The notes under the pieces are model-generated. The model searched no databases. It was not told the DNA's origin and was given only the letters and a program-made list of their open reading frames with translations. DNA of 64,000 bases, taken from assembly GCF_004321985.1 (NCBI RefSeq), contig NZ_SCQN01000046.1, positions 62,001-126,000 on the forward strand. Direction: 5' to 3'. Source of the stretch: Castellaniella sp. (GTDB taxonomy: Bacteria > Pseudomonadota > Gammaproteobacteria > Burkholderiales > Burkholderiaceae_B). This document shows positions 4,544-58,952 of the stretch, one piece after another. Each line of letters starts with the position of its first letter. Position 1 is the first letter of the stretch. Both the position numbers and the translations under genes were made by a program.

Positions 4544-4561
4544 TCTGTGCGGCGCGATGTC

Positions 4562-5047: not shown

Positions 5048-5062
5048 TCCGGAGCCTGGCGC

Positions 5063-6340: not shown

Positions 6341-6396
6341 GCATCTCTGGCCGAGGGATCAGCGCGCGTGCTGACCGGGTCGGCCTGGGAACCCAG

Positions 6397-7431: not shown

Positions 7432-7448
7432 CGGCGATCCGTCTGTCG

Positions 7449-10163: not shown

Positions 10164-10283
10164 GAAGTTCCAGGAGCGGCCGGATGTGCAGCCGCATAGC
10201 GCGGATCATACGACGAATATATCAAACGGGTGCTGGGCCCATCATTTGCCCAACCCGGCTATCCTCCTGTCGGGGATGGCAGA

Positions 10284-11165: not shown

Positions 11166-11195
11166 GGCAGGAATCACGGGGCGCGAGGGCGCCCG

Positions 11196-11666: not shown

Positions 11667-11748
11667 GGCGTCGCATCCAGAATTGCGCCTACAGTGTACT
11701 TGATCCGCCCGATCAGCAGGGTACGGATGGGTACGACCATGGTGCGCC

Positions 11749-44042: not shown

Positions 44043-45461
44043 ATGAAACGACCACTGATGCCTCGCATTGATTGGCTGGAGCCCGCTGTCATGCTGGCCA
44101 CCGTGGTGCAATGGCTGGTGCTCGCGTCACTCACGGGAATGGTGGTGGGGTTCGGGACCAGCGTGTTCCTGCGAGCATTGTTCTACATGACTGACCGGTC
44201 CATCCTCATGCCGGCGTGGGCCTACTGGCTGACTCTTCCGCTGGCGGGCCTGGCCAACGGCCTGTTGATGGGGTATGGGTACCGAAAGCTCGGCACTCCA
44301 GGGTTGAAGGACTCCATCTTTGCCGCGGTGCATGAACAATCGGGGCACATGCCGTGGCGCACGCTGTGGATCAAGCCGGTCGCCGCCATCATCACCCTGG
44401 CCAGCGGCGGTTCGGCCGGCAAGGAAGGACCATGCTCGCACATCGGAGCGTCGCTGGCGGCCGTCGTAGGGCAGGTTTTCCGGTTGAATTCAGAGCTGCG
44501 TCAACGCATCGTGGCCTGTGGCGTGAGCGCCGGGTTCGCCAGCGTGTTCGGCACTCCCATCGCCGGAGCGATCTACGGGGTCGAGATGCTCATCATCGGA
44601 CGCATCCGGCACGACTTCCTGTTCCCTGCGCTGATTGCCGGGGTGACCTCGTTCCAGGTCAGCAAGCGAATGGGGATTCCCTACGAATACTATTTCATGA
44701 GTGCGCTGCCGGCGTTCTCCGAGTCCCTGTTTCTGCGCACGATCCTGATCGGCATGCTGTGCGGGTTGGTGGCGCGCGTATTCGTGGACATGATCTATGC
44801 CGTACGCAATGCCTGCCACCGGCTGCAGGCCCGGTACACCATCTGGCCACCGTTGATGCCGGTGGGGGGCGGTCTGCTCCTGGCCGCGCTGGTGACGGTG
44901 ATTCCCACCGACTATCTGGGGTTGAGTTTGCCGCTCATGGACCGTGCGCTGAGCGGAGAAGCGATGCCGTACCTGGGTTTCCTCTGGAAGACGCTGCTGG
45001 TGGCCATCACGCTGGGTTCCGGGTTCTACGGCGGGATCGTCACTCCCCAGTTCGTGATTGGGGCCGTTGCGGGCAACGCCTTTGCCCACCTGTTCGGCAT
45101 CAGTCCCACGCTGGGTGCGGCCGTGGGGCTGGTGTCGGTCGTGGCGGCGGCGTCGAACACGCCGCTGGCGGCGATACTGATGGGCGTGGAACTGTTTGGC
45201 GGCGCAACCGGCACCATCTATGTGGCGGGCGCCGCCATTGCCGCGTACCTGATCGTCGGTCATCGCAGCGTCTATCCCGACCAGCGGCTGGGCTACGCCA
45301 AGTCGTCCTGGATGCGGGTACAGGCCGAGATTCCCGTCGGCCAGGAAAAAACACATTTGTCCTATGGGTTGCTGAAAAGCTGGGGCCGGATCAAGACCCA
45401 CGGATGGCGGGCCTGGTGGCGGGATACGATGGCTTCAAGAGGGAAACGACATGACGTTTAG
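44043..45461 (+). CDS. CLC-family chloride channel/transporter
   Basis: 472 aa with ten or more hydrophobic helices. The gating-glutamate segment is SAGKEGPCSHIGAS (compare GREGP of E. coli ClcA), followed by GFASVFGTPIAGAIYGVEML, matching the CLC core. The external selectivity loop GSGIP is not present; the equivalent position reads GTPGLKD. Ion selectivity may therefore differ from the standard chloride/proton antiporters. The C-terminal 60 residues are cytoplasmic and basic, with no CBS domains. It overlaps the downstream CPA1 antiporter gene by 11 bases. Confidence 0.88.
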   Translation: MKRPLMPRIDWLEPAVMLATVVQWLVLASLTGMVVGFGTSVFLRALFYMTDRSILMPAWAYWLTLPLAGLANGLLMGYGYRKLGTPGLKDSIFAAVHEQSGHMPWRTLWIKPVAAIITLASGGSAGKEGPCSHIGASLAAVVGQVFRLNSELRQRIVACGVSAGFASVFGTPIAGAIYGVEMLIIGRIRHDFLFPALIAGVTSFQVSKRMGIPYEYYFMSALPAFSESLFLRTILIGMLCGLVARVFVDMIYAVRNACHRLQARYTIWPPLMPVGGGLLLAALVTVIPTDYLGLSLPLMDRALSGEAMPYLGFLWKTLLVAITLGSGFYGGIVTPQFVIGAVAGNAFAHLFGISPTLGAAVGLVSVVAAASNTPLAAILMGVELFGGATGTIYVAGAAIAAYLIVGHRSVYPDQRLGYAKSSWMRVQAEIPVGQEKTHLSYGLLKSWGRIKTHGWRAWWRDTMASRGKRHDV

Positions 45462-47271
45462 CCCCGAATTGGTGATCGCGGGCATCGGCCTGGTTGCGAT
45501 GGCGGCCCAGTGGATTGCCTGGAAGCTGCGCATGCCGGCCATCCTGTTTCTGCTGCTGGCGGGGCTGGCGGTCGGTCCGCTGGAGCACTGGCTGGACCCG
45601 GATGATCTGTTCGGCGAACTGCTCTTTCCCTTCATCTCGTTGTCGGTGGCAGTGATCCTGTTCGAGGGCAGCCTCACGCTGGAGTTTCACCAGATCCGCG
45701 AACTGAAGCAGGTCGTGCGTCGTCTGGTGACGGGAGGCACGCTCATCACCTGGGGCGTGACGACGGTGACGACTCATTGGGTGATGGATTTTCCGTGGGA
45801 CCTGGCGTTTCTGTTCGGTGCGATTACTGCGGTGACCGGCCCGACGGTGATTGCGCCGCTGCTCAAGACGGTGCGGCCGGTGGCGCCCGTGGCGCATGCG
45901 CTGCGCTGGGAGGGCATCCTGATCGACCCGATCGGTGCGTTGTTCGCGGTGCTGGCCTTTCAACTGATGGTGGCCTTGCGGACCACGCACGACTGGAGCC
46001 ACGCGACCTGGGTGTTTGGCATCACGCTGCTGACTGGCTGTGCGGCCGGCGCGACATCGGGCTGGCTCACCAGCACCGCGCTGCGGCGTAACTGGTTGCC
46101 GGACTCGCTGCTCAATCTGTCCGTGCTGGCGATCGTTTTTGCGACCTTCAGTGTGTCCAATGCCATCCATGGCGAGTCGGGCCTGCTGGCCGTGACGATC
46201 CTGGGTCTCTGGTTGGCGAACCGGCCCGGTGTGCCGGTGGGCGACATCCTGGAATTCAAGGAAACGCTCAGCCAGCTTCTGTTGTCCGCTCTGTTCATCC
46301 TGTTGGCCGCGCGTATGGATCTGGACTTGCTGGGTGCGCTTGGCTGGAAGGCGGGTCTGGTGCTGGCGATCATGTTCTGGGTGGCCCGGCCGCTGAAGGT
46401 ACTGTTTTCCACCTGGGGGTCCTCGCTGAAATGGCGTGAACGGGCTCTGCTCGCCTGGATTTCGCCGCGCGGCATCGTCGCCGCCGCCGTTTCGGCCCTG
46501 TTTGCGATCCGGTTGCAGGATTTCGGGGTGCCGCATGCTGAACAGCTGCTGCCGCTGACTTTCGTGGTCATCATCGGTTCCGTGATCTGGCAGAGCCTGA
46601 CGGCGCGGCCGGTGGCGAAGCTGCTGCGTGCGGCGGAGCCTGACCCCGTGGGGTTCCTGATCCTGGGTGCGAATCCGGTTGCGCGCACGATTGCTCAGGC
46701 GCTGCAGGAACAGGGTGTCCCCGTGCGGTTGTGCGACAGCGACTGGTACAGCCTGGCCAAGGCCCGCATGCAGGGATTGCCAACATACTACGGCAGCCCG
46801 GTGTCCGAGCATGCGCACCTGAACCTGGATACCGGGGGGCTGGGACGGCTGCTGGCGCTGGGCGCGCGCGACCACCTGAACCAGCTCATCGTGGTTCGGG
46901 GGCGGGACGAGTACGGCAAGCATCGTGTGTTCAGCCTACCCCGGTCGGATCTGGGGGATGCGGCCGAAAAGCACTCGCTGGATCCGGAGTACCGCGGTCG
47001 CACGCTGTTTGGTTCGGGGCTGGGCTATTGGAAGCTATCCACGCTGCTGCTGGAAGGCGCACAGGTCAAGGCGACGCGGTTGTCCGAAGCCTTCGATTTC
47101 GATCAGTATTGTGGGCAAGGGACGCCGCGCCCCGTGTTCCCGCTGTTTGCGCTGAACCCGAAGGGCTATGCGTTGCCTTTCACGCAGGATCAGCCTTTGC
47201 GGCCCGAAGCAGGCTGGACCGTGATCGGGCTGCATTTGCCGGCTGCGACCGAGGCGGAGACGACGGGCTAA
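45451..47271 (+). CDS. CPA1-family sodium/proton antiporter with C-terminal RCK/TrkA-N domain
   Basis: 606 aa. About twelve membrane helices cover residues 1-400, with FEGSLTLEF, AVTGPTVIAPLL and the functional-Asp segment EGILIDPIGALFAVL, then SPRGIVAAAVSALFA. After about 405 a Rossmann-like RCK_N/TrkA-N domain begins (GFLILGANPVARTIAQALQEQGVPVRLCDSD). Such domains bind NAD(H) or nucleotides and gate cation transport. It overlaps the CLC gene by 11 bases, so chloride and cation/proton movement may be coupled. It converges on ridA with a 4-base gap. Confidence 0.9.
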   Translation: MTFSPELVIAGIGLVAMAAQWIAWKLRMPAILFLLLAGLAVGPLEHWLDPDDLFGELLFPFISLSVAVILFEGSLTLEFHQIRELKQVVRRLVTGGTLITWGVTTVTTHWVMDFPWDLAFLFGAITAVTGPTVIAPLLKTVRPVAPVAHALRWEGILIDPIGALFAVLAFQLMVALRTTHDWSHATWVFGITLLTGCAAGATSGWLTSTALRRNWLPDSLLNLSVLAIVFATFSVSNAIHGESGLLAVTILGLWLANRPGVPVGDILEFKETLSQLLLSALFILLAARMDLDLLGALGWKAGLVLAIMFWVARPLKVLFSTWGSSLKWRERALLAWISPRGIVAAAVSALFAIRLQDFGVPHAEQLLPLTFVVIIGSVIWQSLTARPVAKLLRAAEPDPVGFLILGANPVARTIAQALQEQGVPVRLCDSDWYSLAKARMQGLPTYYGSPVSEHAHLNLDTGGLGRLLALGARDHLNQLIVVRGRDEYGKHRVFSLPRSDLGDAAEKHSLDPEYRGRTLFGSGLGYWKLSTLLLEGAQVKATRLSEAFDFDQYCGQGTPRPVFPLFALNPKGYALPFTQDQPLRPEAGWTVIGLHLPAATEAETTG

Positions 47272-47275
47272 CCGC

Positions 47276-47671
47276 CTATCTTGTGGCCGGCTGATAGGCC
47301 GTGACGTCGATCTCCAGCCTGGCATCCACCATGAGACGTGCTTCCACAGTGGATCGCGCCGGGCGATGCGTGCCGAAGCATTCCATGTAGATCCGGTTGA
47401 ATGCGCCGAAATCGCGTGCATCGGCTAGCCAGACGCTGGTCTTGCAGACGTCCTGCAGCGTGCAGCCAGCCAGTTCCAGGGCCTTTTCGAGGTTCTTGAA
47501 GACTTGCCGGGTCTGGACCTCGATGGTGCCGCCCACCAGTTCGCCATTCGCATTCGTAGGGACTTGGCCGGAGATGAAGACGAAATCGCCCGCGCGCACG
47601 GCCGGTGAGAATGGGCGCGCCTTGTGGTCCGACGCCGTGGGTTCGCCTCCCAGCAATTGGATGGATTTCAT
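47276..47671 (-). CDS. ridA: RidA/YjgF-family enamine/imine deaminase
   Basis: 131 aa. The catalytic Arg106 is in RPARSTVEAR and the supporting Glu120 is in LEIDV, matching Arg105/Glu120 of the active RidA subfamily. RidA hydrolyses 2-aminoacrylate and other enamines released by PLP-dependent dehydratases, preventing damage to PLP enzymes. It diverges from an operon that includes a D-serine dehydratase-like enzyme, which would generate exactly such enamines. One TGTAAT-type operator lies 17 bases upstream of its start. Confidence 0.93.
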   Translation of the reverse strand: MKSIQLLGGEPTASDHKARPFSPAVRAGDFVFISGQVPTNANGELVGGTIEVQTRQVFKNLEKALELAGCTLQDVCKTSVWLADARDFGAFNRIYMECFGTHRPARSTVEARLMVDARLEIDVTAYQPATR

Positions 47672-47687
47672 GAATACCCCAAAGATT

Positions 47688-47702
47688 TGTAATTAAATTA
47701 CA
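47688..47702. promoter_or_regulatory. Putative RpiR-family operator 1
   Basis: TGTAATTAAATTACA, with perfect 7-base arms around one central base. It lies directly upstream of ridA, in its leader/promoter zone. RpiR-family regulators such as HexR bind this type of TGTA(A/G)T-n-TTACA palindrome, and an RpiR gene is in the neighbouring operon. Confidence 0.7.
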
Positions 47703-47726
47703 GGGAAAACCCCATATATCGAATTA

Positions 47727-47755
47727 TTGACAGTTACATAAGCCGAAAATAGTAT
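47727..47755 (+). promoter_or_regulatory. Sigma-70 promoter of the peptide-ABC/D-amino-acid operon
   Basis: TTGACA (47727-47732), 17-base spacer, TAGTAT (47750-47755). The predicted transcription start is near 47762, which falls inside operator 2. The region 47672-47788 is much more AT-rich than its surroundings, as expected for a real promoter. Confidence 0.7.
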
Positions 47756-47760
47756 GTTCG

Positions 47761-47775
47761 TGTAATTTTATTACT
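47761..47775. promoter_or_regulatory. Putative RpiR-family operator 2
   Basis: TGTAATTTTATTACT, matching operator 1 in both arms except the last base. It covers the predicted start site of the operon, a repressor position. Its centre is 73 bases from that of operator 1, almost exactly seven helical turns, so two dimers could bind on the same face and loop. Confidence 0.65.
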
Positions 47776-47788
47776 TAGGGGTCGACAT

Positions 47789-49375
47789 ATGCAACCACGC
47801 ACTTTCACCGGCCGGGCCTCGCTCGGTCAACCCTCCGACCCCGCGCGCCGTCGGGTCCTGCTGGCAGGCGTTCTGGGTTTGCCCGCCCTGGCCCTGTCGG
47901 GGCGTTCGGCCTTGGCTGCCTCGGCTACCCGCTCGGCGAGCCTGGCCATGATCGGCGAGCCACAGACGCTGGATCCCATGCTGACAACGGCGGATCTGGT
48001 TGGCACGCTGATGCAACACGTCTATGAGCCGCTTTATACCTTCGACAGCCACTGGAACATCGTCCCCATGTTGGCCGCCTCGCTGCCGACCATGCGGGAT
48101 CAGGGCCATACCGTGGAAATTCCGCTACGCCAGGGCGTGAAGTTCCACGATGGCCAGTTCATGAAAGTCGGCGATGTGATCGCATCCCTGAAGCGCTGGC
48201 TTGCCGTGTCGCCTCGCGGCAAGGCGGTCGCCGCGCAGGTAGCCGGCATCGAAGCGGGGGCAGACCGCATCACGCTGAAGCTGAAGTCGCCCTATGCGCC
48301 GCTACTGGCGCAGCTGGCGCTGCCCACCAGCATGGCCGGGGTCATGCCGGAACACACGGTTGCCGCACAGTTGACCCAGTTCGTGGGAACCGGGCCGTAT
48401 CGTCTGAAGGAGCGCCGCCCGGATCAGTACACGATCCTGGAGAAGTTCGATCAGTATGCGGCGCGCAGCGAAGCGCCGGATGGCTATGGCGGCAGGCGCA
48501 CGGCCTACATCCAGGAACTGCGCTTCGTCCCTGTGCCCGATTCCAACACGCGCACCGAAGGCATCCTGTCTGGCCAGTTCGCATATGCGGACTTGCTGCC
48601 GGTGGAGGTCGCGGGCCGGCTGGAACGCGGTGGCAAGGCGGTCGTGCCGCTGATCGGCAAGGACTTCGGCTTCCCTTATCTGGTGTTCAACACCCGAAAA
48701 GGTACGCTGGCTTCGGTGCCGCTGCGTCAGGCAGCGCAGGCCGCGCTGGGGGCCGAGGAAATGATGGCGGCCGCCTTTGGTGATCCGCGATTCTTCAGCA
48801 TCGGCGCCAATTTCTTCCCACAAGGTACGCCCTACTATTCACTAGCGGGACAGCAGCACTACAACGTGAACCAGCCAAAGCTGGCCGCCGATCTCGCCCG
48901 GAAAGCCGACTATGCCGGCAAACCCATACGCATCCTGGCCAGCCGACAGTACGAGTTCCATTACAACATTGCCTTGGTGCTGGCCGAGCAGTTCAAGCGC
49001 GCCGGTCTGGCCACCGACCTGCAGGTAGTGGACTGGGCGACACTGCTGCAGCGACGCAATGATCCCGAACTCTGGGACATCTACATCACCCACTCGGGGC
49101 TGTTTCCCGAGCCCATGCTGTCGCCACCGCAGTTGGGTGACGGTGCGCCTGGCTGGTGGGACACGCCGGAAAAGACCCGCTTGCTCGCTGCCTTCAACCA
49201 GCAGGTCGATTTGGCTCTGCGCGGTCCGTTGTGGGGGCCGGTCCAGCAGTTGGTCTACGAACAGGTGCCATTTGTGGAACTGGGCAAGTTCAACAGCCTG
49301 TCTGCACGCGCCAGCAGGCTGCAGGGCTTTGTGCCCAGCGCCTGGCCGTTCTTCTGGAATACCCGGTTTGCCTAG
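47789..49375 (+). CDS. Peptide/nickel-type ABC transporter solute-binding protein (family 5)
   Basis: 528 aa. The signal peptide carries SDPARRRVLLAG, a twin-arginine-like motif, then a hydrophobic stretch ending ALA (about residue 43), so export may be through Tat. The mature part is an SBP_bac_5 protein: EPQTLDPMLTTADLVGTLMQHVYEPLYTFD and PLRQGVKFHDGQFMKVGDVIASLKRW. The ATG at 47789 has an AGGGG ribosome binding site. First gene of an eight-gene operon. Its context with D-amino-acid enzymes suggests the ligand is an N-acyl-D-amino acid or short D-residue peptide. Confidence 0.92.
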   Translation: MQPRTFTGRASLGQPSDPARRRVLLAGVLGLPALALSGRSALAASATRSASLAMIGEPQTLDPMLTTADLVGTLMQHVYEPLYTFDSHWNIVPMLAASLPTMRDQGHTVEIPLRQGVKFHDGQFMKVGDVIASLKRWLAVSPRGKAVAAQVAGIEAGADRITLKLKSPYAPLLAQLALPTSMAGVMPEHTVAAQLTQFVGTGPYRLKERRPDQYTILEKFDQYAARSEAPDGYGGRRTAYIQELRFVPVPDSNTRTEGILSGQFAYADLLPVEVAGRLERGGKAVVPLIGKDFGFPYLVFNTRKGTLASVPLRQAAQAALGAEEMMAAAFGDPRFFSIGANFFPQGTPYYSLAGQQHYNVNQPKLAADLARKADYAGKPIRILASRQYEFHYNIALVLAEQFKRAGLATDLQVVDWATLLQRRNDPELWDIYITHSGLFPEPMLSPPQLGDGAPGWWDTPEKTRLLAAFNQQVDLALRGPLWGPVQQLVYEQVPFVELGKFNSLSARASRLQGFVPSAWPFFWNTRFA

Positions 49376-49376
49376 C

Positions 49377-50333
49377 ATGCGCGCGGCCTTCAGGCTCCTG
49401 GTCACACAGCTGCTGAGCGCCTGCCTGGTGCTGCTCATCGTCGCCGTGATGGTTTTCTCGCTGGTGCATCTGGCCTCAGGTGATCCCATCGCGGTGCTGC
49501 TGGGCGATCAGGCGACGGCGGCTGACATTGCTCAGGTTCGCGCCCAGTATGGCCTGGATCAGCCGCTGGTCCAGCAGTTCTTTCTCTGGCTGGGGCAGGT
49601 GCTGCACGGCAATCTGGGCAATTCCATTTTCATGCAGCAGCCCGTGGTGGATGTGCTGTGGGACCGAGCTCAGCCCACCATCATGCTGTCGGTGTTGTCG
49701 GTCCTGATCGCCACGCTGATTGGAGTTCCCTGTGGTGTGCTGGCTGCCGTGTGGCGCGGGTCGCGTACCGATCAGGTGGTCAGCGCCGTGGCCATGTGCG
49801 CTGCCAGCGTTCCCAGTTTCTGGATGGGCCTGATCCTGATCCGCCTGTTTGCCGTGCAGCTTGGGTGGCTGCCGGCATCTGGCTATGGGCCGCCTGATGC
49901 CAGCATTCCGGACCGCTTCATCCACCTGATCCTGCCATCGGTGGTGCTCGGGGTGCTGAATTCGGCTCTCATCATCCGCTTCACGCGTGCCTCGATGCTC
50001 GACACGTTGGGCGAGGACTATGTGCGCACTGCGCGCGCCAAGGGGCTGTCCGAACCGGACGTTATCCTGCGCCATGTCATGAAGAATGCTCTGATTCCCA
50101 TCGTCACGGTCATTGGCCTGACCATGGCGCTCATGATAGGTGGAACGGTGGTGACCGAGACCGTGTTCAACCTGCCAGGGGTGGGCAGCCTGGTCGTGCG
50201 CGCCGTGCTGCGGCGCGATTACCCGGTCATCCAGGGCACGCTTTTGGTGGTGGCCTTCATCTATGTCGTCATCAATTTCGTGATCGATTTCCTGTACACC
50301 GTCATCGATCCCCGCATCCGGGTGACCGCATGA
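49377..50333 (+). CDS. Peptide-type ABC transporter permease (DppB-like)
   Basis: 318 aa with six predicted helices. The first helix and large periplasmic loop (VHLASGDPIAVLLGDQA, ... DQPLVQQFFLWLGQVLHGNLG) and the EAA loop (EDYVRTARAKGLSEPDVILRHVMKNALIP) are diagnostic of the DppB/OppB family. It starts one base after the binding-protein stop and overlaps the next permease by 4 bases. Confidence 0.93.
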   Translation: MRAAFRLLVTQLLSACLVLLIVAVMVFSLVHLASGDPIAVLLGDQATAADIAQVRAQYGLDQPLVQQFFLWLGQVLHGNLGNSIFMQQPVVDVLWDRAQPTIMLSVLSVLIATLIGVPCGVLAAVWRGSRTDQVVSAVAMCAASVPSFWMGLILIRLFAVQLGWLPASGYGPPDASIPDRFIHLILPSVVLGVLNSALIIRFTRASMLDTLGEDYVRTARAKGLSEPDVILRHVMKNALIPIVTVIGLTMALMIGGTVVTETVFNLPGVGSLVVRAVLRRDYPVIQGTLLVVAFIYVVINFVIDFLYTVIDPRIRVTA

Positions 50334-51193
50334 CGGCGCTTGCCCTGACGGACAGCCCAAGCGGGCGCTTTGTGCGGCGCCTGTTTGCGCGGCGCGTGGT
50401 GGCATTGGCCGCGCTGGTGCTGCTGGTCGTGATCGCGACGGCGCTGGCCATTTCCTGGTTGTCGTCGGTGGATCCGAACGCGATCGCCATCACTCAGCGG
50501 CTGCGGGCGCCTTCGTGGCAGTTCTGGGGCGGTACGGACCAGCTTGGACGCGACGTGATGCTGCGCGTGGCCTACGGCGGACGCTATTCCCTGCTGATCG
50601 GCTTTGCCACCGCCGTCGGCGCCACGCTGATCGGCACCGTGATGGGGATGGTGGCTGGCTACTTCCGGGCGCTGGATGGCATCATCATGCGGGTGGTGGA
50701 CGCCATGATGGCCTTCCCCGATATCCTGCTGGGGATCGCGCTGGTCTCCATCCTGGGGCCGTCGCTGTGGAACGTGGTTCTGGCTCTGGTGATCGTCTAC
50801 AGTCCACGGGTGGCCCGCGTGGCGCGTGCCTCGACGCTGGTGTTGCGTGATCTGCTCTATGTGGATGCGGCTCGCGCACTGGGGACGCCGACCTGGCGCA
50901 TTCTCCGGATGCACGTGCTGCCGGGGCTGATGTCGCCGGTGCTGGTACAGCTCACCTTCATCTTCGCCTATGCCATCCTGGCCGAGGCTGGTCTGTCGTT
51001 CCTGGGGGTCGGGGTTCCGCCTTCCATTCCGACCTGGGGCACCATGATTGCCGGCAGCCTGAACTACATGGATCATGCGTTCTGGACCATCATCTACCCG
51101 GGACTGGCGATCGTGGTGACCTCGCTCGCGCTGCAGCTGGTGGGCGACGGCATTCGGGATTCCCTGGATCCCAAACTGAGGAAGGGCGCATGA
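50330..51193 (+). CDS. Peptide-type ABC transporter permease (DppC-like)
   Basis: 287 aa with five or six helices. The DppC/OppC features are FWGGTDQLGRDVMLRVAYGGRYSLLIGF and the EAA loop YVDAARALGTPTWRILRMHVLPG. It forms the heterodimeric channel with the preceding permease. It overlaps both neighbours by ATGA-type 4-base junctions (50330 and 51190). Confidence 0.93.
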   Translation: MTALALTDSPSGRFVRRLFARRVVALAALVLLVVIATALAISWLSSVDPNAIAITQRLRAPSWQFWGGTDQLGRDVMLRVAYGGRYSLLIGFATAVGATLIGTVMGMVAGYFRALDGIIMRVVDAMMAFPDILLGIALVSILGPSLWNVVLALVIVYSPRVARVARASTLVLRDLLYVDAARALGTPTWRILRMHVLPGLMSPVLVQLTFIFAYAILAEAGLSFLGVGVPPSIPTWGTMIAGSLNYMDHAFWTIIYPGLAIVVTSLALQLVGDGIRDSLDPKLRKGA

Positions 51194-52263
51194 GCTCAGC
51201 ATCGCTGGTGACGAAGGGTTCTGCGGCGCACGCCGTGGCGGCCCCCGATCTGGTCCGCCTGGATGTCAGAGGGTTATCCACGTCCTTCATGACCGAGCGC
51301 GGCCGGGTGCAGAGCGTGGCCGATGTGTCGTTCGCGGTACCGGCCGGGCGTACGCTGGCACTGGTCGGTGAATCGGGCTCTGGGAAGTCGGTCACCAATC
51401 TCAGCCTCATGGGGTTGCACGCGCGAAGCGCGCAGCCGCTGGTGGGCGGCCACGCCCGCTTCGTGCGGCGCAATGGGGATGCGGTCGAACTCATTGGCTT
51501 GTCGGAAAAGGCTTTCCGGACGCTGCGCGGCAACGAAATCGCCATGGTGTTTCAGGAACCGATGACCAGCCTCAACCCCTTGCTGACAGTCGGCGAGCAG
51601 ATTGCCGAGTCGGTTCGGCTGCACTGGGGGTATGGCCGAGCACAGGCGCTGGCCCATGCGCAGCGAATGCTGGATCTGGTCGAAATTCCGGCGGCTGCGC
51701 GGCGGGTCGGCGAATATCCTCATCAGCTGTCGGGCGGCATGCGCCAGCGCGTCATGATCGCCATCGCCATGGCCTGCACGCCCACGCTGTTGATCGCCGA
51801 TGAGCCCACTACGGCACTCGACGTGACGATACAGGCACAGATCCTGGCTCTGATCGGCCGTCTGCAGCGCGAGACCGGCATGAGCGTGCTGTTCGTGACG
51901 CACAATCTGGGCGTGGTGGCCCAGTATGCGGACGAGATCGCTGTGATGTATGCCGGCCGCATCGTCGAGCGCGGCGAAGTGCACCGTCTGTTCGCCCATC
52001 CGGCTCATCCATATACACGGGCGTTGCTCGACTGCCTGCCGGCCATGGCCCGGCGCCGGCCCCATGCGCCTGGCGTGCGGCCGCGCCTGTCCGCCATCGA
52101 GGGCCAGGTGTCCAGTCTGTTCGAACCGCCACCAGGCTGTGCGTTTCGCCCACGCTGTCCGGTGGCTACGGCCGAGTGCGACCAGGCAATGCCGTCCATG
52201 ATTCGCGTCAACGACCAACAGGAAGCCCGCTGCATCCGGCTGCGGGACGGATTCCATGACTGA
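51190..52263 (+). CDS. Peptide-type ABC transporter ATP-binding protein (DppD-like)
   Basis: 357 aa. Walker A GESGSGKS, signature [15 protein letters not shown], Walker [15 protein letters not shown] and the His switch FVTHNLG are intact. The C-terminal oligopeptide-transporter extension carries the Cys cluster ([15 protein letters not shown]) that may bind an iron-sulfur cluster in DppD/OppD proteins. It overlaps the next ATPase gene by 8 bases. Confidence 0.93.
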
Positions 52264-53221
52264 CGGCGACCCGTTGATCGAGATCCAGGGCCTGTGCAAG
52301 AATTTCGGGCCCTCTGTCGCACCCGTACGTGCGGTAACCGACGTGTCGTTTACTATCCGCAAGGGCGAGACCGTCGGGCTGGTGGGCGAGTCCGGTTCGG
52401 GCAAGACCACTATCGGCCGCATGCTCACGCGCCTGGCCGACCCGTCGGCGGGTCGTGTGATTTACCGCGGGTTGGATCAGCCCATGGATCTGGCAGCCAT
52501 CAGTCTGCGCCGGTATCGGCCGCTACGCGCGCGTATTCAAATGATTTTCCAGGATCCGTATGCGAGCCTGAACCCCCGGTTACGAATCCGTCAGATCATT
52601 GGCGAGGCACTGGATACTCACGGTCTCCACAGGGGCGCTGCGCGGTTGCCGCGCATCCACGCGCTACTGCGCCAAGTGGGGCTTGGTGCAGAGCACGCCG
52701 AGCGCTACCCGCACGAATTCTCCGGTGGCCAGCGCCAGCGCATCGGCATCGCCCGTGCGCTGGCAGTCGAGCCGGAATTCATCGTCGCTGATGAGCCGTT
52801 ATCCGCGCTGGATGTTTCCATCCAGGCCCAGGTGATCAATCTGCTGTCGGACATCCGTGAGCATCTGGGGCTGACCATGTTGTTCATTTCGCATGACCTG
52901 GATGTGGTGGAATATCTGTGTGACCGCGTAGTGGTGCTGTATCTGGGGCGGGTCGTTGAAATCGCACCCACGCGCGAGCTCTATGCCCACCCCTGCCACC
53001 CCTATACGCGCGCCTTGCTGGCGGCTGCGCCTGCCCCTGATCCTGCGCAGCGACGGGACATTCCGCTGCTCGAAGGTGACCTGCCTAGTCCGGCCAATCC
53101 GCCGTCGGGCTGCGTATTCCGCACTCGATGCCCGTTGGCCCAGGCGCGCTGCGCCAGCCACGACATGCAGCTCCGCCAGGTGGGGGACGAACACTGGACC
53201 GCCTGCTGGCGCGATGCTTGA
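52256..53221 (+). CDS. Peptide-type ABC transporter ATP-binding protein (DppF-like)
   Basis: 321 aa. Walker A GESGSGKTT, signature FSGGQRQRIGIARAL, Walker B FIVADEPLSALDVS, His switch FISHDLD. The C-terminal tail has the same Cys arrangement (GCVFRTRCPLAQARC). It completes the five-gene importer and is 21 bases before the PLP enzyme gene. Confidence 0.93.
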   Translation: MTDGDPLIEIQGLCKNFGPSVAPVRAVTDVSFTIRKGETVGLVGESGSGKTTIGRMLTRLADPSAGRVIYRGLDQPMDLAAISLRRYRPLRARIQMIFQDPYASLNPRLRIRQIIGEALDTHGLHRGAARLPRIHALLRQVGLGAEHAERYPHEFSGGQRQRIGIARALAVEPEFIVADEPLSALDVSIQAQVINLLSDIREHLGLTMLFISHDLDVVEYLCDRVVVLYLGRVVEIAPTRELYAHPCHPYTRALLAAAPAPDPAQRRDIPLLEGDLPSPANPPSGCVFRTRCPLAQARCASHDMQLRQVGDEHWTACWRDA

Positions 53222-53242
53222 ATTTTTCGGGAACATGACATC

Positions 53243-54517
53243 ATGTATCAGGACGACATCATTCTGCTGGACCATCGCTTCAAGGGCTTTCCGCCCGCTG
53301 CCGCGCCGTGTGCGCCAGACCGCATCGCGGAGCGGGGATGGAACCTGTTTCATGACGATCTGCCATTTCCGCTGGCGGTGCTCGACCAGGCGGCGCTGGA
53401 TCACAATCTGCGGTGGATGCAGGCGTTTGCGGCCGAGCGTGGCGTGGATATTGCGCCGCACGGCAAGACCACGATGTCCCCGCAGATCTTTCGTCGCCAG
53501 CTGGATGCGGGCGCCTGGGGCCTGACTTTTGCCACGATCTTTCAGGTAGGGGCAGGGGTACGGGCCGGAGCGCGGCGCATTATCGTGGCCAACCAGGTGC
53601 TGGCGGATGCGGACCTGGACGGCCTGGCGGCCCTGCTGGACGCGCACCCGGACCTGCGGGTCTGGTTCCTGGTGGACTCGGATGCCCAGGTGGCGCTCAT
53701 CGAGGATTGGGCATATCGGCGGCACTGGGACCGCCCGCTGGATTGTCTGCTCGAGATCGGCGTTCCCGGGCAGCGTACGGGGTGCAGGACGGCGGCTCAG
53801 GCGCTGGCGCTGGCAACCCGGATCCGCGGCAGCCTGGCCCTGAAGCTGGGCGGGATCGAATGCTACGAAGGCGGGCTCGCCCATTGTGACCGGGCGGGTG
53901 ACGAGGCGTCGGTCGCCGAATTCCTGGGCCGCGTGCGCGCCGTGGCCGAGCAGTGCGACCGGCAGCAGCTCTTCGAGGACGAGACTGTCATCCTGAGTGC
54001 GGGCGGTTCGGCTGTCTTCGACGTGGTAGCACCCGCTCTGCGCCTCTCGCTTTCACACCCGGTGCGCGGCGTGTTGCGGTCGGGATGCTACGTCACGCAC
54101 GATCATGGGTTCTACGCCGGAATGCTGCGCAACGTCGAAGCCCGCAGCGGTCTGGACCACAGCCTGCGTCCCGCGCTGTCGGTCTGGACCCTGGTCCAGT
54201 CGGTGCCGGAACCTGGCCTGGCTCTGCTGACCTGCGGCAAGCGCGATATCTCGTTCGACCTGTCCCTGCCGCAGCCGATCCAGTACGCACCCCGCAGCGC
54301 CGTCGCTGCTGCCGTCGCACCGGCCGACTGGAAGGTGACGGCGCTCAATGACCAGCACGCCTACCTACGCTTCGATCCTGTTGGTCGGGTCCCTGTGGTC
54401 GGCGACCGTGTTGTCCTCGGGATTTCGCATCCTTGCACGACTTTCGACAAATGGCGCTGGATGCCGCTGGTGGATGCGCAGGGTCAGGTGACGGGCGCCG
54501 TCACCACTGAATTCTAG
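53243..54517 (+). CDS. D-serine dehydratase-like / D-threonine aldolase-like fold-III PLP enzyme
   Basis: 424 aa. Fold-III (alanine-racemase-like) TIM barrel with the PLP lysine Lys75 in APHGKTTMSP and a C-terminal beta domain. GISHPCTTFDKWR holds the metal-binding pair His396/Cys398 of the eukaryotic-type D-serine dehydratase and D-threonine aldolase family. Such enzymes remove water and ammonia from D-Ser or D-Thr, or cleave 3-hydroxy-D-amino acids. Which of these applies cannot be decided. It sits between the importer and its RpiR regulator; dehydration would produce 2-aminoacrylate, the substrate of the divergent RidA. Confidence 0.87.
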   Translation: MYQDDIILLDHRFKGFPPAAAPCAPDRIAERGWNLFHDDLPFPLAVLDQAALDHNLRWMQAFAAERGVDIAPHGKTTMSPQIFRRQLDAGAWGLTFATIFQVGAGVRAGARRIIVANQVLADADLDGLAALLDAHPDLRVWFLVDSDAQVALIEDWAYRRHWDRPLDCLLEIGVPGQRTGCRTAAQALALATRIRGSLALKLGGIECYEGGLAHCDRAGDEASVAEFLGRVRAVAEQCDRQQLFEDETVILSAGGSAVFDVVAPALRLSLSHPVRGVLRSGCYVTHDHGFYAGMLRNVEARSGLDHSLRPALSVWTLVQSVPEPGLALLTCGKRDISFDLSLPQPIQYAPRSAVAAAVAPADWKVTALNDQHAYLRFDPVGRVPVVGDRVVLGISHPCTTFDKWRWMPLVDAQGQVTGAVTTEF

Positions 54518-54526
54518 GAAGGTGGA

Positions 54527-55426
54527 ATGAGCAGACAAACGGTCCCGAACTGGTCGGAAGACGGTCTCCTGCAGCGGCTGCGCAGCGCGCTGCCTGATCT
54601 GAGTGGGGCGCAGCAGCGCGTGGTCACGTCCGTCCTGGCCGATCCGGCCATGATCGTCAATCTGACGGTGGAAGCCATTGCCGGTCAGGCGGGCGTCTCC
54701 ATGCCGACAGTGGTGCGCACCTGCCGCAGCTTCGGTTTCGACAGCGTGCGAAACTTCATGCTGGCGCTGGCCCAGGATCTGGCGCTGTCGCCGCACCACC
54801 TGCACCGCAACGTCTCGCTGGACGATGATGCGCCAGAGGTGTCACGCAAGATCATCCAGGGTGCGATCTCCTCGCTGGCCAACCTGCAGCGACGGCTGGA
54901 TGTCGCGGTGATCGATCAGGCTGCCGTCCGGCTGGCTCGGGCCTCGCGGATCGATACCTATTCGGTGGGTTCCACATCAGCCTTTATGGCGCAGGAACTG
55001 CAGGCCCGGCTCTTTCGCCTGGGGTTGCGCGCCAACGCTTTCGCCGACGCGCACCAGCAGCTGATCTCCGCCAGTTCGCTGGATGCCGATGGCGTGGCCT
55101 TCGTCGTGTCCCACGTGGGTAGCATGCCCTTCATGCTGGAGGCTGCGCATCTGGCGCGCAGCCGGGGCGCGACGGTGGTGGCGTTGACGCAGCCGGACAC
55201 GCCTCTGGCGCATTGCGCCGATCTTTGTCTGGCTGTATCTGTGCCGCAGGACACCACCATGCGCGTGGGCACGGAAGCGTATCTTGCGCATCTGCTGGTT
55301 ATCGAGATCCTGATGGTCCGGATCGCGCAGCAACTGGGCCCGCAGACGCTGGAGCGGCTCAGGCAGTTCAAGCAGGTGCTGGAACAGCACGGGGTGGACA
55401 GTTCCGTTTACATCGGGCTCTATTGA
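54527..55426 (+). CDS. RpiR-family transcriptional regulator
   Basis: 299 aa. An N-terminal RpiR HTH domain (about 15-90: LSGAQQRVVTSVLADP, TVEAIAGQAGVSMPTVVRTCRSFGF) and a C-terminal SIS domain (about 140-270, IDTYSVGSTSAFMAQELQARL). SIS domains usually bind phosphosugars but in some RpiR proteins sense other ligands. It is encoded inside the operon it probably controls. The two TGTAAT palindromes upstream of the operon are of RpiR/HexR type. Its stop overlaps the deacylase start (TGATG). Confidence 0.9.
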   Translation: MSRQTVPNWSEDGLLQRLRSALPDLSGAQQRVVTSVLADPAMIVNLTVEAIAGQAGVSMPTVVRTCRSFGFDSVRNFMLALAQDLALSPHHLHRNVSLDDDAPEVSRKIIQGAISSLANLQRRLDVAVIDQAAVRLARASRIDTYSVGSTSAFMAQELQARLFRLGLRANAFADAHQQLISASSLDADGVAFVVSHVGSMPFMLEAAHLARSRGATVVALTQPDTPLAHCADLCLAVSVPQDTTMRVGTEAYLAHLLVIEILMVRIAQQLGPQTLERLRQFKQVLEQHGVDSSVYIGLY

Positions 55427-56877
55427 TGGCAAATGACAATCACCTGACGGTACTGTGCAATGGTCTGCTCTTTGACGGAACGGGAGCACCAACCAGGCCG
55501 GCAGATATCTGGATCCGGCAGGATCGCGTGGTGGCCATCTGTGATCCTGGGGTCAGCCCCCCCGGTTCGATGGGTGCGCGGCGAGTCGATTGCGCGGATC
55601 GCGTGGTCGCGCCCGGTTTCATCGACGTGCATACGCATGACGATGCCATCGTCCTCGATCAACCGGAGATGCTGCCCAAGCTATCCCAGGGCGTGACGAC
55701 CGTGATCGGCGGCAACTGCGGGATTTCGCTGGTTCCGCTCATCACCGATTCGCCGGAGGCACCGCTGTCGCTGCTTGGAACACATCAGTTCCGCTTTGCC
55801 GATCTGCGGTCCTATCAGGACGCCGTGGATGCGGCGCGTCCGGGGGTCAATGTTGCCATGCTCATCGGCCATACGGCGCTGCGCATGCAGGCCATGAGCG
55901 ATCTGGATCGGCCGGCCAATGCAGCCGAGTTGCAGCGCATGTGCGATGTGCTGGATTCAGCCATGCAAGCCGGGGCGGTGGGCCTGTCTTCCGGAGTGTT
56001 CTACCACCCTGCGTTTGCGGCCGACGTCCATGAACTGAGCACCCTGGTCCGGGTGATCGCGCCCTACCATGGCGTCTATACATCGCACATCCGGGACGAG
56101 CTCAAGGGCATCATGGCGTCTCTCGAAGAGGCGGCGCTCACGGCGCGGCTGGGCGGTGCTGCACTGGTGCTGTCGCACCACAAGTGTGCGGGGCCAGGGA
56201 ACTGGGGTCGTACGCGCGAGACGCTGGCCCGCATCGAGGCTCTATCGCAAGAACAGTCGATCGGGCTGGACGTCTATCCCTACACGGCCGGCTCCACCGT
56301 ATTGCGGGAGGACCTGGTCGATGGCGTCATCGACATCCTGATCACCGGCAGCCAATCCCATCCCGAGATGGCGGGCCGCTACCTGGCGGACATTGCCAAA
56401 GAATGGGGGGTCTCGCAGGTGCAGGCGGTGCGCCGGCTGTCGCCCGGCGGCGCGTGCTACTTTCAGATGCAGCAGGAGGACGTGGATCGGGTGGTCTGCC
56501 ATCCGCTGACCGTCATCGGATCCGATGGCCTGCCGCATGACGAGCGGCCGCACCCGAGGCTGTGGGGCGCCTTCCCACGCGTGCTGAACCAATACTGGCG
56601 CGAGAAAGGGCTACTGTCCCTGGAACAGGCCCTGCACAAGATGACAGGCTTGTCCGCCGAACGTTTTCATCTGGCCGGGCGTGGGATTCTACGCACGGGC
56701 AGTTTTGCTGATGTGGTGGTCTTCGATCCGGCTCTGGTTCGGGACTGCTCGACGTACTCGGAACCCTGGCGCTTCAGCGAGGGTATCGAGCAGGTATGGG
56801 TGAATGGCTGCCTGAGCTACAGTGGTCGGGAGCGAGCCTGCATCGGCCGTGCCGGCCGGTTCGTGCCCAGGGCCTGA
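55426..56877 (+). CDS. N-acyl-D-amino-acid deacylase (D-aminoacylase)
   Basis: 483 aa, amidohydrolase superfamily. GFIDVHTHDD carries the metal ligands His69 and His71; GNCG has Cys98, the bridging Cys typical of D-aminoacylases; LSHHKCAG gives further His ligands; and SDGLPHD has the catalytic Asp near residue 365. The enzyme hydrolyses N-acetyl- or N-acyl-D-amino acids to free D-amino acids. It is cytoplasmic. It overlaps the RpiR gene by one base, placing it in the importer operon. The precise side-chain preference is unknown. Confidence 0.92.
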   Translation: MANDNHLTVLCNGLLFDGTGAPTRPADIWIRQDRVVAICDPGVSPPGSMGARRVDCADRVVAPGFIDVHTHDDAIVLDQPEMLPKLSQGVTTVIGGNCGISLVPLITDSPEAPLSLLGTHQFRFADLRSYQDAVDAARPGVNVAMLIGHTALRMQAMSDLDRPANAAELQRMCDVLDSAMQAGAVGLSSGVFYHPAFAADVHELSTLVRVIAPYHGVYTSHIRDELKGIMASLEEAALTARLGGAALVLSHHKCAGPGNWGRTRETLARIEALSQEQSIGLDVYPYTAGSTVLREDLVDGVIDILITGSQSHPEMAGRYLADIAKEWGVSQVQAVRRLSPGGACYFQMQQEDVDRVVCHPLTVIGSDGLPHDERPHPRLWGAFPRVLNQYWREKGLLSLEQALHKMTGLSAERFHLAGRGILRTGSFADVVVFDPALVRDCSTYSEPWRFSEGIEQVWVNGCLSYSGRERACIGRAGRFVPRA

Positions 56878-56932: not shown

Positions 56933-57475
56933 ATGGCAAGCCGTCTCTTCTTTGCCCTGTGGCCCGATGAGGACGTCGTGCGCGAGCTCACGCAATGGGC
57001 GCGCCAGGCGCACGATCTGTGCGGCGGATGCATGATGCACCCCGACACGCTGCACCTGACGCTCGCGTTCCTGGGGTCGGTTGACGATGATCGAGTCCCC
57101 GGGCTGCAGGCGCTGCTGCGCAGCCGTCGGTGGATCGGTGGGCCGCTTACCCTGGATTGCTATGGCCGATTTCGCGGGCCGCGCATCGTCTGGGCGGGAT
57201 CGTCCGAATTCGTCCCCTGGCTGGACCGGATGCATGCCGCGTTGTGGCGTGCGCTGTCCCGTCTGGGGTTCGAGGCGTCGGCGGAGCCGTTCAGGCCGCA
57301 CCTGTCGCTGCTTCGTCGGGCCGACCCACAGGATCTCTCGGTCTTGCCCACGCCGCGGCCGGTGGTCTGGGCGGCCCGCCGGCTGGTGCTGGTGGCTTCT
57401 ACTCCGCGTGAGTCGGGGTCCTGGTACCGGGAAATCGCGGCCTGTGACCTGTCCGCAGCAGACGGTTTTGGATGA
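56933..57475 (+). CDS. thpR: RNA 2',3'-cyclic phosphodiesterase ThpR (LigT family)
   Basis: 180 aa, 2H phosphoesterase. The two H-x-(T/S)-x motifs are HLTL (His41) and HLSL (His123). The start RLFFALWPDEDV is typical. It hydrolyses RNA 2',3'-cyclic phosphates to 2'-phosphates and was first noted as a 2'-5' RNA ligase. It lies 55 bases after the deacylase on the same strand; whether it is part of that operon is uncertain, and no functional link is obvious. Confidence 0.92.
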   Translation: MASRLFFALWPDEDVVRELTQWARQAHDLCGGCMMHPDTLHLTLAFLGSVDDDRVPGLQALLRSRRWIGGPLTLDCYGRFRGPRIVWAGSSEFVPWLDRMHAALWRALSRLGFEASAEPFRPHLSLLRRADPQDLSVLPTPRPVVWAARRLVLVASTPRESGSWYREIAACDLSAADGFG

Positions 57476-57587
57476 TATGATGAAGCCGAAAAAATAGCGG
57501 GCCGTACTGGTTCTGCAAGGTGGGTTTTTATTCAACATCTGCCTCGCTGGCTCCCTGTGCGGATCCGCTTCACAACCAGGAGACTTT

Positions 57588-58952
57588 ATGAAGACATCCG
57601 TTGGCTTTGCATTGCGCAAACTGCTGCTCCCTGCTCTGTGCGCGGCCCTGCTGGCCCCCGTTGCGTCTCAGGCGGACACGCTCACCGTCTGGTGGAACAA
57701 GGGCTACTACCCCGAGGAAGACGCTGCCATCAAGGACACCGTCAAAAAGTGGGAACAGAAGACCGGCAACAAGGTTCAGCTCACTTTCTACAGCACTGAG
57801 GACCTTCCCACCAAGCTGATTGCCGCCGTCAATGCCGGCAACGTTCCGGACGTGGCCTATGAGGACGTCGGGGATTTTGCTCAGATCCCCCAGCTGGCCT
57901 GGGATGGGCAACTGACGGATCTCTCCAGCGTGGTGGAGCCAGCCAAGGACCTGTACACCAAGACGGCGCTGCTGACGGCGCACCTGTACGACAGCAAGAC
58001 CAGCAAGCGCAGCTACTACGCGGTACCGATCAAGCAGCAGGCCATGCACGTCTTCGTCTGGAAGTCCATGCTGGAAAAGGCGGGGAAGACCGAAAAGGAC
58101 ATCCCGCAGCAATGGGATCAGTACTGGAAGTTCTGGGAGCAGGTCCAGGACACGCTGCGCGCGAAGCGTGAACGCGTCTATTCCATGGGCCTGACGGTTT
58201 CCGCCACGGGGACCGACAACTACTACCTGTTCAACCAGTTGCTGCTGTCCTATGGCGCGCGCGTGGTTGACGAACAAGGTAAGCTGAAGGTCGACGACCC
58301 CAAGGTCCGCGAGGCGGCCATCAAGCTGATCACGTTCCTGGCCGACATCTACAAGAAGGGCTACGTTCCGCCCGGTGCCATCAACTGGGGCGATGCGGAC
58401 AACAATGCGGCCTTCTACTCGCATCAGGTCGTCATGACATTCAACCCCAGCCTGTCGATTCCGGCCGGCAAACAGGGGGACTCCAAGACTTATCACGACA
58501 TGATCACACTGCAGCCGCCTGCGGGGCTGGATGGCAAGCTCACTCCCAGCCTGGTGGCGGTCAAGTCCGCCATCGTCCCGGGCGGAGCCAAGCACGTGGA
58601 CCTGGCCAAGAATTTCCTGACCTTCCTGATCCAGCCCAAGGAACTTGGCGCCTACCTGCGCGCCTCTCAGGGCCGCTGGCTGCCGGTGATGCCCAGCATC
58701 ATCAAGGCTGACCCGTTCTGGACCAACCCGAGCGATCCGCACCTGCCGGTAGCCACCAAGCAGGAAGTCATGGAACCGACCGAGCCTTGGCCCCAGGCCC
58801 TCAATCCGGCCTACGCCTTCGTCAACTCACAAGAAGTATGGGGCCGTGCGGTTGGCCAGGTGCTGGTCAATGGGATGAAGCCGGATGCCGCCGTGGACCA
58901 GGCCATCGCGCAGATCAAGCAGATCTTCTCCAAATACCAGGTTCATGAGTAG
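57588..58952 (+). CDS. CUT1-type ABC transporter solute-binding protein (family 1)
   Basis: 454 aa with a Sec signal peptide (about 1-29, ending SQA). The mature protein has the SBP_bac_1 layout: TLTVWWNKGYYPEEDAAIKDTVKKWEQKTGNKVQL, PDVAYEDVGDF and NPSLSIP. The family mostly binds oligosaccharides or glycerol phosphates. A CCAGGAGACTTT ribosome binding site precedes the ATG at 57588. It heads an operon with two permeases, an ATPase and an FMN dehydrogenase, so the actual ligand may be a hydroxy acid or sugar acid. Confidence 0.9.
   Translation: MKTSVGFALRKLLLPALCAALLAPVASQADTLTVWWNKGYYPEEDAAIKDTVKKWEQKTGNKVQLTFYSTEDLPTKLIAAVNAGNVPDVAYEDVGDFAQIPQLAWDGQLTDLSSVVEPAKDLYTKTALLTAHLYDSKTSKRSYYAVPIKQQAMHVFVWKSMLEKAGKTEKDIPQQWDQYWKFWEQVQDTLRAKRERVYSMGLTVSATGTDNYYLFNQLLLSYGARVVDEQGKLKVDDPKVREAAIKLITFLADIYKKGYVPPGAINWGDADNNAAFYSHQVVMTFNPSLSIPAGKQGDSKTYHDMITLQPPAGLDGKLTPSLVAVKSAIVPGGAKHVDLAKNFLTFLIQPKELGAYLRASQGRWLPVMPSIIKADPFWTNPSDPHLPVATKQEVMEPTEPWPQALNPAYAFVNSQEVWGRAVGQVLVNGMKPDAAVDQAIAQIKQIFSKYQVHE

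What the first reader, a model, noticed from the sequence alone, without database searches (positions are those of the whole stretch)
47276..56877. A complete N-acyl-D-amino-acid uptake and breakdown system with built-in RidA detoxification
Seen: divergent ridA, then five peptide-ABC genes, a fold-III PLP enzyme with D-serine dehydratase metal ligands, an RpiR regulator and a D-aminoacylase, all tightly packed or overlapping. Known: D-serine dehydratases release 2-aminoacrylate and RidA hydrolyses it; D-aminoacylase makes free D-amino acids. Inferred: the importer takes up N-acyl-D-amino acids or D-residue peptides, the deacylase frees them, the PLP enzyme deaminates them and RidA quenches the enamine, all under one RpiR switch. 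This exact combination is not one I recognise as described.
Basis: partly seen in the sequence, partly recalled or inferred. Interest (0 to 1): 0.72.

Follow-up and report, generated by a model that had tools for sequence, protein, structure and literature searches.

The report
Operon probably eating oxidised amino sugars
Nine neighbouring bacterial genes probably import an N-acetylated sugar acid, strip off its acetyl and amino groups and feed the rest into central metabolism; they look like a cousin of a recently described route for oxidised chitin rather than a D-amino-acid system.

Summary
The genes are as described: divergent ridA, five peptide-type ABC genes, a fold-III PLP enzyme with dehydratase-type metal ligands, an RpiR regulator and a D-aminoacylase-family deacylase. 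The set is conserved: 42 distinct loci of the same type besides the window, 34 with all nine genes. RpiR-type palindromes 73 bp apart lie between ridA and the importer. But PLP deaminase + RpiR + D-aminoacylase-like deacetylase + RidA is already described as the ong cluster for oxidised chitin (GlcNAc1A; PMC9537276), where RidA is essential. The window's deacylase belongs to a clade that groups with OngB (support 89) but has its own pocket signature, neither OngB nor Alcaligenes D-aminoacylase. In 9 of 42 sister loci a kinase of 2-keto-3-deoxy-sugar-acid type stands directly beside the cluster, five times DgoK with DgoA aldolase, in two arrangements. So the substrate is more likely a 2-acetamido-2-deoxy-aldonate (perhaps N-acetyl-D-galactosaminate) than an N-acyl-D-amino acid. 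The window's own genome has such kinases only elsewhere. New variant of a known kind.

The parts
47276..47671 (-). RidA-family enamine/imine deaminase, divergent from the importer
   Evidence: PF01042 113 bits; TIGR00004 100.7 bits, just under its cut-off 106.25; Arg106 in PAR motif
47688..47702 (.). Operator-like palindrome 1, TGTAATTAAATTACA
   Evidence: 2 matches with at most 1 mismatch in the window, expected 0.01; pair conserved in sister loci
47761..47775 (.). Operator-like palindrome 2, TGTAATTTTATTACT, 73 bp from the first
47789..49375 (+). Family-5 solute-binding protein, twin-arginine-like signal (ARRRVLLAG, own reading)
   Evidence: PF00496 182.5 bits; nearest PDB 8vdx 143 bits, then AgaA 6hlx 91 bits
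49377..50333 (+). ABC permease 1 (DppB/GsiC type)
   Evidence: PF00528 159 bits; start read
50330..51193 (+). ABC permease 2 (DppC type)
   Evidence: PF00528 105 bits
51190..52263 (+). ABC ATPase 1 (OppD type)
   Evidence: PF00005, PF08352
52256..53221 (+). ABC ATPase 2 (OppF type)
   Evidence: PF00005, PF08352
53243..54517 (+). Fold-III PLP deaminase/dehydratase with Cys-type metal site
   Evidence: PF14031 74 bits; 3gwq 307.6 bits; K75, C398
54527..55426 (+). RpiR/MurR-family regulator
   Evidence: PF01418, PF01380; nearest curated model HexR 174.7 bits, cut-off 296, not met
55426..56877 (+). D-aminoacylase-family deacetylase, type A pocket signature FYEAGSTLQ
   Evidence: PF07969; 9g5m 478, 1m7j 452, 3gip 441, 9kb1 414 bits; signature and tree

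Best explanation
An inducible operon for catabolism of 2-acetamido-2-deoxy-aldonic acids (C1-oxidised N-acetylhexosamines). The ABC importer brings in the acid; the deacylase removes acetate; the resulting 2-amino-2-deoxy-aldonate is formally a D-alpha-amino acid with a beta-hydroxyl, which the PLP enzyme dehydrates and deaminates through an enamine; RidA speeds or cleans up its hydrolysis to a 2-keto-3-deoxy-aldonate; a kinase and aldolase, beside the operon in some relatives and elsewhere in this genome, give pyruvate and glyceraldehyde-3-phosphate. RpiR represses from two phased operators until a sugar-phosphate-like inducer appears. Shown: genes, order, conservation, operator pair, kinase/aldolase linkage in relatives. 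Inferred: every substrate and reaction step in this organism, and the looping. The galacto isomer (N-acetyl-D-galactosaminate) is my best single guess, because DgoK with DgoA is the pair linked most often, but the gluco isomer or both are open.
For: ong precedent with the same enzyme set, essential RidA and RpiR repressor (PMC9537276). Deacylase clade joined with the OngB clade, SH-aLRT 89, AfDam outside. Kinase beside the cluster (within 170 bp) in 9 of 42 type A loci: DgoK, PF05035 over 300 bits in each of L034, L035, L037, L113, L117, with DgoA next to it; of these DgoA three were scanned and pass the KDPGal-aldolase cut-off of 207 (L034 280, L035 267, L113 272 bits), the other two rest on tblastn. 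PfkB kinases in L114, L115, L116, L123, whose best curated match is the KDG/KDGal kinase, all below its cut-off. dgoK-dgoA follow dam in three loci and lie beyond ridA in two, which suggests at least two separate joinings. Control: the same queries found none in 16 of 16 type B loci within the flank held. Relatives further off: Endozoicomonas L159 has dam, ridA, dgoK, dgoA, a KdgK-like kinase and eda; Undibacterium L154 has dgoK, ridA, a NagP-like transporter, plp and dam. FAD D-amino-acid-dehydrogenase-like genes: none in the held flanks of 40 of 42 type A loci, a fragment of another FAD oxidoreductase at the locus edge in two; present in 7 of 13 family loci whose PLP gene has no such cluster.
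Against: 33 of 42 loci show no linked kinase, among them all three Polaromonas and all but one of the Variovorax loci. In the window's genome DgoK (39-43%) and DgoA (56%) homologues are distant and sit in a galactarate/altronate-type cluster; a PfkB kinase and an Eda-type aldolase are on another contig. The congener G029, with the same nine genes, has no DgoK match and one PF01081 aldolase only; G135 has closer DgoK/DgoA (60% and 71%) but unlinked; G033 has only a 38% DgoK, and its contig ends about 220 bases after dam. Phmmer places the window deacylase nearer AfDam (452) and the N-acyl-D-glutamate enzyme (441) than PpOngB (414), though the top hit 9g5m (478) carries the OngB-like signature. 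The pocket lacks the OngB residues that bind the sugar hydroxyls. The PfkB kinases score 170-207 against a cut-off of 400, and that of the window's genome scores alike (169). The importer family is named for peptides. DadA-like genes also stand by two of four OngB-signature loci of other families, and six of the seven FAD genes by lone PLP genes are one genus, so this contrast is weak.
Confidence: 0.65

Rival explanations
1. One reading: uptake of N-acyl-D-amino acids or D-residue peptides, deacylation, deamination of D-Ser/D-Thr by the PLP enzyme, RidA removing 2-aminoacrylate.
For: Family names of deacylase and PLP enzyme; OngC itself also deaminates D-Ser and D-Thr; the closest PLP relatives outside such clusters (60-64% identical, eight genomes) stand alone, six of them, one genus, near a DadA-like gene; the deacylase keeps Phe and Thr at two positions where AfDam has them.
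Against: Kinase linkage in 9 of 42 loci; AfDam pocket residues Met254 and Met346 not kept; deacylase clade groups with OngB.
Confidence: 0.22
2. It is simply the ong route for GlcNAc1A with another importer; the pocket changes are neutral. (This lies inside the class of the best explanation, so the odds overlap.)
For: Same enzyme set and regulator class; type B clusters with the OngB signature use homologous importers, about 50% identical SBP; G029 has only a PfkB kinase and one PF01081 aldolase.
Against: Ser292 and Gln298, shown by mutation to matter in PpOngB, are Thr in 42 of 42 and Leu in 41 of 42 type A deacylases; DgoK/DgoA, not KdgK, is the commonest linked pair.
Confidence: 0.25
3. Uptake of opine-like amino-acid/sugar conjugates, the deacylase cutting an unusual amide.
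For: Second-best solved relative of the binding protein is AgaA, an agrobacterial opine binder by recall.
Against: Only 91 bits; opine genes were not searched for.
Confidence: 0.05

Closest known systems
ong cluster of Pseudoalteromonas prydzensis ACAM 620 (PMC9537276)
   Same: Fold-III PLP deaminase, RpiR repressor, D-aminoacylase-like deacetylase and RidA; order ongC-ongR-ongB as here (plp-rpiR-dam)
   Different: SSS symporter, a TonB-type outer-membrane receptor, GH20 and KdgK in the ong cluster; here a five-gene ABC importer, no glycosidase and no linked kinase; ridA divergent; deacylase pocket differs
OngB GlcNAc1A deacetylase, PDB 9kb1 (PMC12017989)
   Same: Metal ligands, catalytic Asp, Tyr194, Glu226, Ala256 and Ser291 equivalents; neighbouring clade
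   Different: Ala193 is Phe, Ser290 Gly, Ser292 Thr, Gln298 Leu, Gly348 Gln
Alcaligenes D-aminoacylase AfDam, PDB 1m7j
   Same: Fold family, metal site, Phe191 and Thr290 equivalents; 452 bits
   Different: Met254 is Ala and Met346 Gln; at the Leu298 region the ungapped alignment gives Asp (position 299), the alignment to OngB position 298 Leu
Type B clusters of the same bacterial family (L052, L053, L055-L063, L066-L068, L071, L072)
   Same: Same nine gene families, same importer kind
   Different: Order plp-sbp-permB-permC-atpD-atpF-rpiR-dam-ridA on one strand; OngB signature; in five scanned no palindrome with at most 1 mismatch, two weak ones before plp in L071 and one elsewhere in L061

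Membership tests
ong (GlcNAc1A) pathway | Fold-III PLP deaminase, RpiR, D-aminoacylase-like deacetylase and RidA together | tested here: met
   OngC, OngR and OngD sequences themselves were not at hand for comparison
ong (GlcNAc1A) pathway | OngB pocket residues Ser292 and Gln298 (PpOngB numbering) | tested here: not met
   Thr and Leu
ong (GlcNAc1A) pathway | KDG kinase in the cluster | tested here: not met
   none among the window genes scanned; KDG/KDGal-type kinase beside 9 of 42 sister loci
ong (GlcNAc1A) pathway | SSS symporter and GH20 hexosaminidase | tested here: not met
   five ABC genes instead; neither family among the neighbours scanned
ong (GlcNAc1A) pathway | Activity on GlcNAc1A | not testable with these tools
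   needs enzyme assay
AfDam-type D-aminoacylase | Hydrophobic pocket Phe191, Met254, Leu298, Met346 | tested here: not met
   Phe kept; Met254 is Ala, Met346 is Gln; Leu298 region ambiguous, Asp or Leu by alignment frame
Fold-III D-serine dehydratase family (PF14031) | Pfam domain over cut-off, PLP lysine, His-x-Cys metal ligands | tested here: met
   74 bits against 22; K75, C398; ligand roles recalled
RidA | PF01042 and the catalytic arginine | tested here: met
   113 bits; Arg106; TIGR00004 missed by about 6 bits; arginine role recalled
HexR regulator | NF008451 curated cut-off | tested here: not met
   174.7 of 296 bits

The most novel reading that the evidence does not exclude
A previously undescribed catabolic route for N-acetyl-D-galactosaminic acid (oxidised GalNAc) in Burkholderiales: peptide-type ABC import, a new deacetylase subfamily, PLP dehydration with RidA, then DgoK/DgoA; switched by an RpiR that holds a DNA loop between two operators kept about 7 or 8 helical turns apart.
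Probability: 0.38. Interest if true: 0.66.

Novelty: new variant of a known kind. Interest (0 to 1): 0.5.

Why it matters
It would extend the ong logic (treat an oxidised amino sugar as a D-amino acid), which its authors found almost only in Gammaproteobacteria, to many Burkholderiales, with another importer and perhaps another sugar. It offers a second system in which to test what RidA does, a point the ong authors leave open. It also warns that genes annotated 'D-aminoacylase' and 'amino acid deaminase' may be sugar-acid enzymes.

Tried and rejected
Rfam (gathering threshold) and tRNA scans of the window: nothing. HexR for the regulator: below cut-off. Filing the deacylase as AfDam or OngB: pocket residues tested and not met. 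Chance for the operator pair: rejected by shuffles, but the consensus was chosen after looking at the data and the spacing search was limited to 60-100 bp. A deacylase-kinase fusion in L123, suggested by one long frame, was checked and rejected: the long frame is a shadow frame upstream of the kinase. A paper for PDB 9g5m/9gv8: none found. A recurrent SDR gene near type A loci (7 loci) is loosely placed and was not interpreted. The Aeromonas chitin paper PMC11653859 (passages) found no convincing OngB or OngC there and did not help further. No structure was predicted.
Full report
Observation. The nine genes are present at the given coordinates, in the given order and as tightly packed as claimed. 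The family assignments hold at curated Pfam cut-offs. The PLP enzyme has the His-x-Cys site of dehydratases.

Prior art. It is known in another form. In Pseudoalteromonas prydzensis an RpiR repressor (OngR), a fold-III PLP deaminase (OngC), a D-aminoacylase-like deacetylase (OngB) and a RidA protein (OngD), with a kinase, symporter and hexosaminidase, catabolise GlcNAc1A, the oxidised unit of chitin made by LPMOs (PMC9537276; passages read). OngB gives GlcN1A, OngC gives KDG and ammonia and also acts on D-Ser and D-Thr; deletion of ongD abolishes growth on GlcNAc1A but its role is called unknown. The paper reports the complete pathway in one betaproteobacterium, Achromobacter piechaudii, all others being Gammaproteobacteria. 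PMC12017989 (abstract and sections 4, 7, 9 and 10 read) gives the structure of PpOngB and the residues that separate it from D-aminoacylases. A Paraglaciecola operon with the same enzymes is noted in PMC7014002 (passages).

Conservation in the family. Homologues of the PLP enzyme (E at most 1e-30) occur in 51 of 200 genomes drawn from the window's family. I looked at neighbourhoods in 38 of these 51 (for G199 only its weaker second match). Seven, the window's included, have the window's arrangement (type A: ridA divergent, then sbp-permB-permC-atpD-atpF-plp-rpiR-dam). Sixteen have a second arrangement (type B: plp-sbp-permB-permC-atpD-atpF-rpiR-dam-ridA on one strand; ridA of L058 is beyond the fetched end). 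Thirteen have a PLP gene without such a cluster, one (L069) a partial one with a less similar importer, and G199 was not resolved.

Wider conservation. With the criteria dam at least 50%, plp at least 48% and rpiR at least 40% identical, and repeats of the same place dropped (L111 repeats L037; further re-fetched stretches), there are 42 distinct type A loci besides the window: 6 from the family search and 36 named. Thirty-four hold all nine genes; of the other eight, six are cut by contig ends, L126 lacks the ATPase matches and L150 the ridA match. They lie in Pollutimonas, Acidovorax, Variovorax, Polaromonas, Comamonas, Ramlibacter, Pelomonas, Caenimonas and others.

Deacylase. With PpOngB numbering, positions 193, 194, 226, 256, 290, 291, 292, 298 and 348 read AYEASSSQG in PpOngB, FYEMGSTRM in AfDam (sequence alignment; the paper's structural match puts Leu298 at the key place) and FYEAGSTLQ in the window. 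Forty of 42 type A loci share the last signature; L150 has Met for Leu, L172 His for Gln. All 16 type B loci have Ala193, Ala256, Ser290-292 and Gln298, with Gly348 in 14 and Asn in two (L061, L068), so they are predicted GlcNAc1A deacetylases. In a tree of 54 rows, chosen by me from the larger set, the 14 OngB-signature rows are one group (SH-aLRT 97), 16 of 17 rows labelled type A (FYEAGST at its start) with one other row form a second (95), L154 stands apart, the whole is joined with support 89, and AfDam lies outside (quick method, no bootstrap, PpOngB has odd composition). Against this, pairwise scores put the window protein nearer AfDam than PpOngB.

Neighbours tell the product. Beside the cluster (within 170 bp) 9 of 42 type A loci carry a kinase of the kind that phosphorylates 2-keto-3-deoxy sugar acids. 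Five are DgoK (PF05035, 306-324 bits) next to DgoA: L034, L035, L037 downstream of dam, L113 and L117 beyond ridA. DgoA of L034, L035 and L113 pass the curated KDPGal-aldolase cut-off; those of L037 and L117 rest on tblastn. Four are PfkB kinases, L114, L115 and L116 beyond ridA and L123 after dam, whose best curated match is the bifunctional KDG/KDGal kinase at 170-207 bits, below its cut-off of 400. The same queries found none in 16 type B loci (flanks of limited length, five of these places seen further in L086-L090). In G041, G018 and G061 this is the only DgoK match in the genome. Endozoicomonas L159 and Undibacterium L154 combine related deacylases with DgoK and other sugar genes. Of the 13 family loci whose PLP gene has no cluster, 7 have a DadA-type or related FAD gene nearby (six of one genus); of the 42 type A loci none has a whole one in the held flank, two (L148, L172) show a fragment of such an oxidoreductase at the locus edge.

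The window's own genome. Its DgoK (39-43%) and DgoA (56%) homologues lie on contig C3 beside a galactarate/altronate-type dehydratase and a DapA-family gene; a PfkB kinase (best curated match the KDG/KDGal kinase, 169 of 400 bits) and an Eda-type aldolase lie on C8. G029, a congener with all nine genes, has no DgoK match, only such a kinase (192 bits) and one PF01081 aldolase. So the galacto assignment is weaker for this genus than the sugar-acid class as a whole.

Regulation. Two palindromes, TGTAATTAAATTACA and TGTAATTTTATTACT, 73 bp apart, lie between ridA and sbp; at most one mismatch gives 2 hits in 64 kb against 0.01 expected, and in the whole genome TGTAATNNNATTACW occurs at three places, two of them here. 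Pairs were sought in 36 ridA/sbp gaps (window and 35 loci): in 33 the pair was not equalled in 100 shuffles each; L124, L126 and L143 were equalled in 1, 1 and 2. Twelve have the TGTAAT form with spacing 72-74; 21 have a TGAAAT form, 19 of them spaced 80-86, one 71 and one 74. At 10.5 bp a turn (recalled) seven and eight turns are 73.5 and 84 bp, which suggests a loop held by RpiR. Consensus and spacing range were set after looking.

Mechanism and verdict. I take the operon to import and break down an N-acetylated 2-amino-aldonate, probability about 0.65 for the class, with GalNAc1A the single best guess. Reactions are inferred; no assay was available. A search for names of N-acetylgalactosaminic acid and its amine listed three papers, none on bacterial catabolism by title, and the listings show no ABC-importer version; the library lacks most subscription journals. 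It is a new variant of a known kind.

Noticed in passing
L052, L053, L055-L063, L066-L068, L071, L072: Sixteen type B clusters in the same family pair the OngB pocket signature with a peptide-type ABC importer: probable GlcNAc1A utilisation with an importer not mentioned in the parts of the ong papers that I read.
   Followed up: partly
window 47688-47775 and the ridA/sbp gaps of 35 sister loci: Operator pairs fall into two main spacing classes, about 73 and about 84 bp, with a parallel change of motif from TGTAAT to TGAAAT.
   Followed up: partly
L048 (G000:C77) 3792-12525: Second PLP paralogue (35%) in the same genome, divergent from a RidA 73% identical to the window's, flanked by two small amino-acid-type ABC sets (by eye) and a DAO-family FAD enzyme.
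   Followed up: partly
L039 (G128) against L035, L037: The PLP gene alone sits at the same leuB-asd/aroC site (genes named by eye) where relatives carry the whole cluster: cluster gain or loss around a fixed PLP gene.
   Followed up: no
window 44043-47271: ClC chloride channel and a Na/H exchanger with TrkA-N domain upstream, overlapping by 11 bases.
   Followed up: no
window 56933-60683: RNA 2',3'-cyclic phosphodiesterase, then a separate ABC importer (SBP_bac_1/8 binding protein and two permeases) downstream.
   Followed up: no
L080, L083: OngB-like deacylases in another family sit with a GntP symporter and a DadA-like gene, so that branch may also touch D-amino acids.
   Followed up: no
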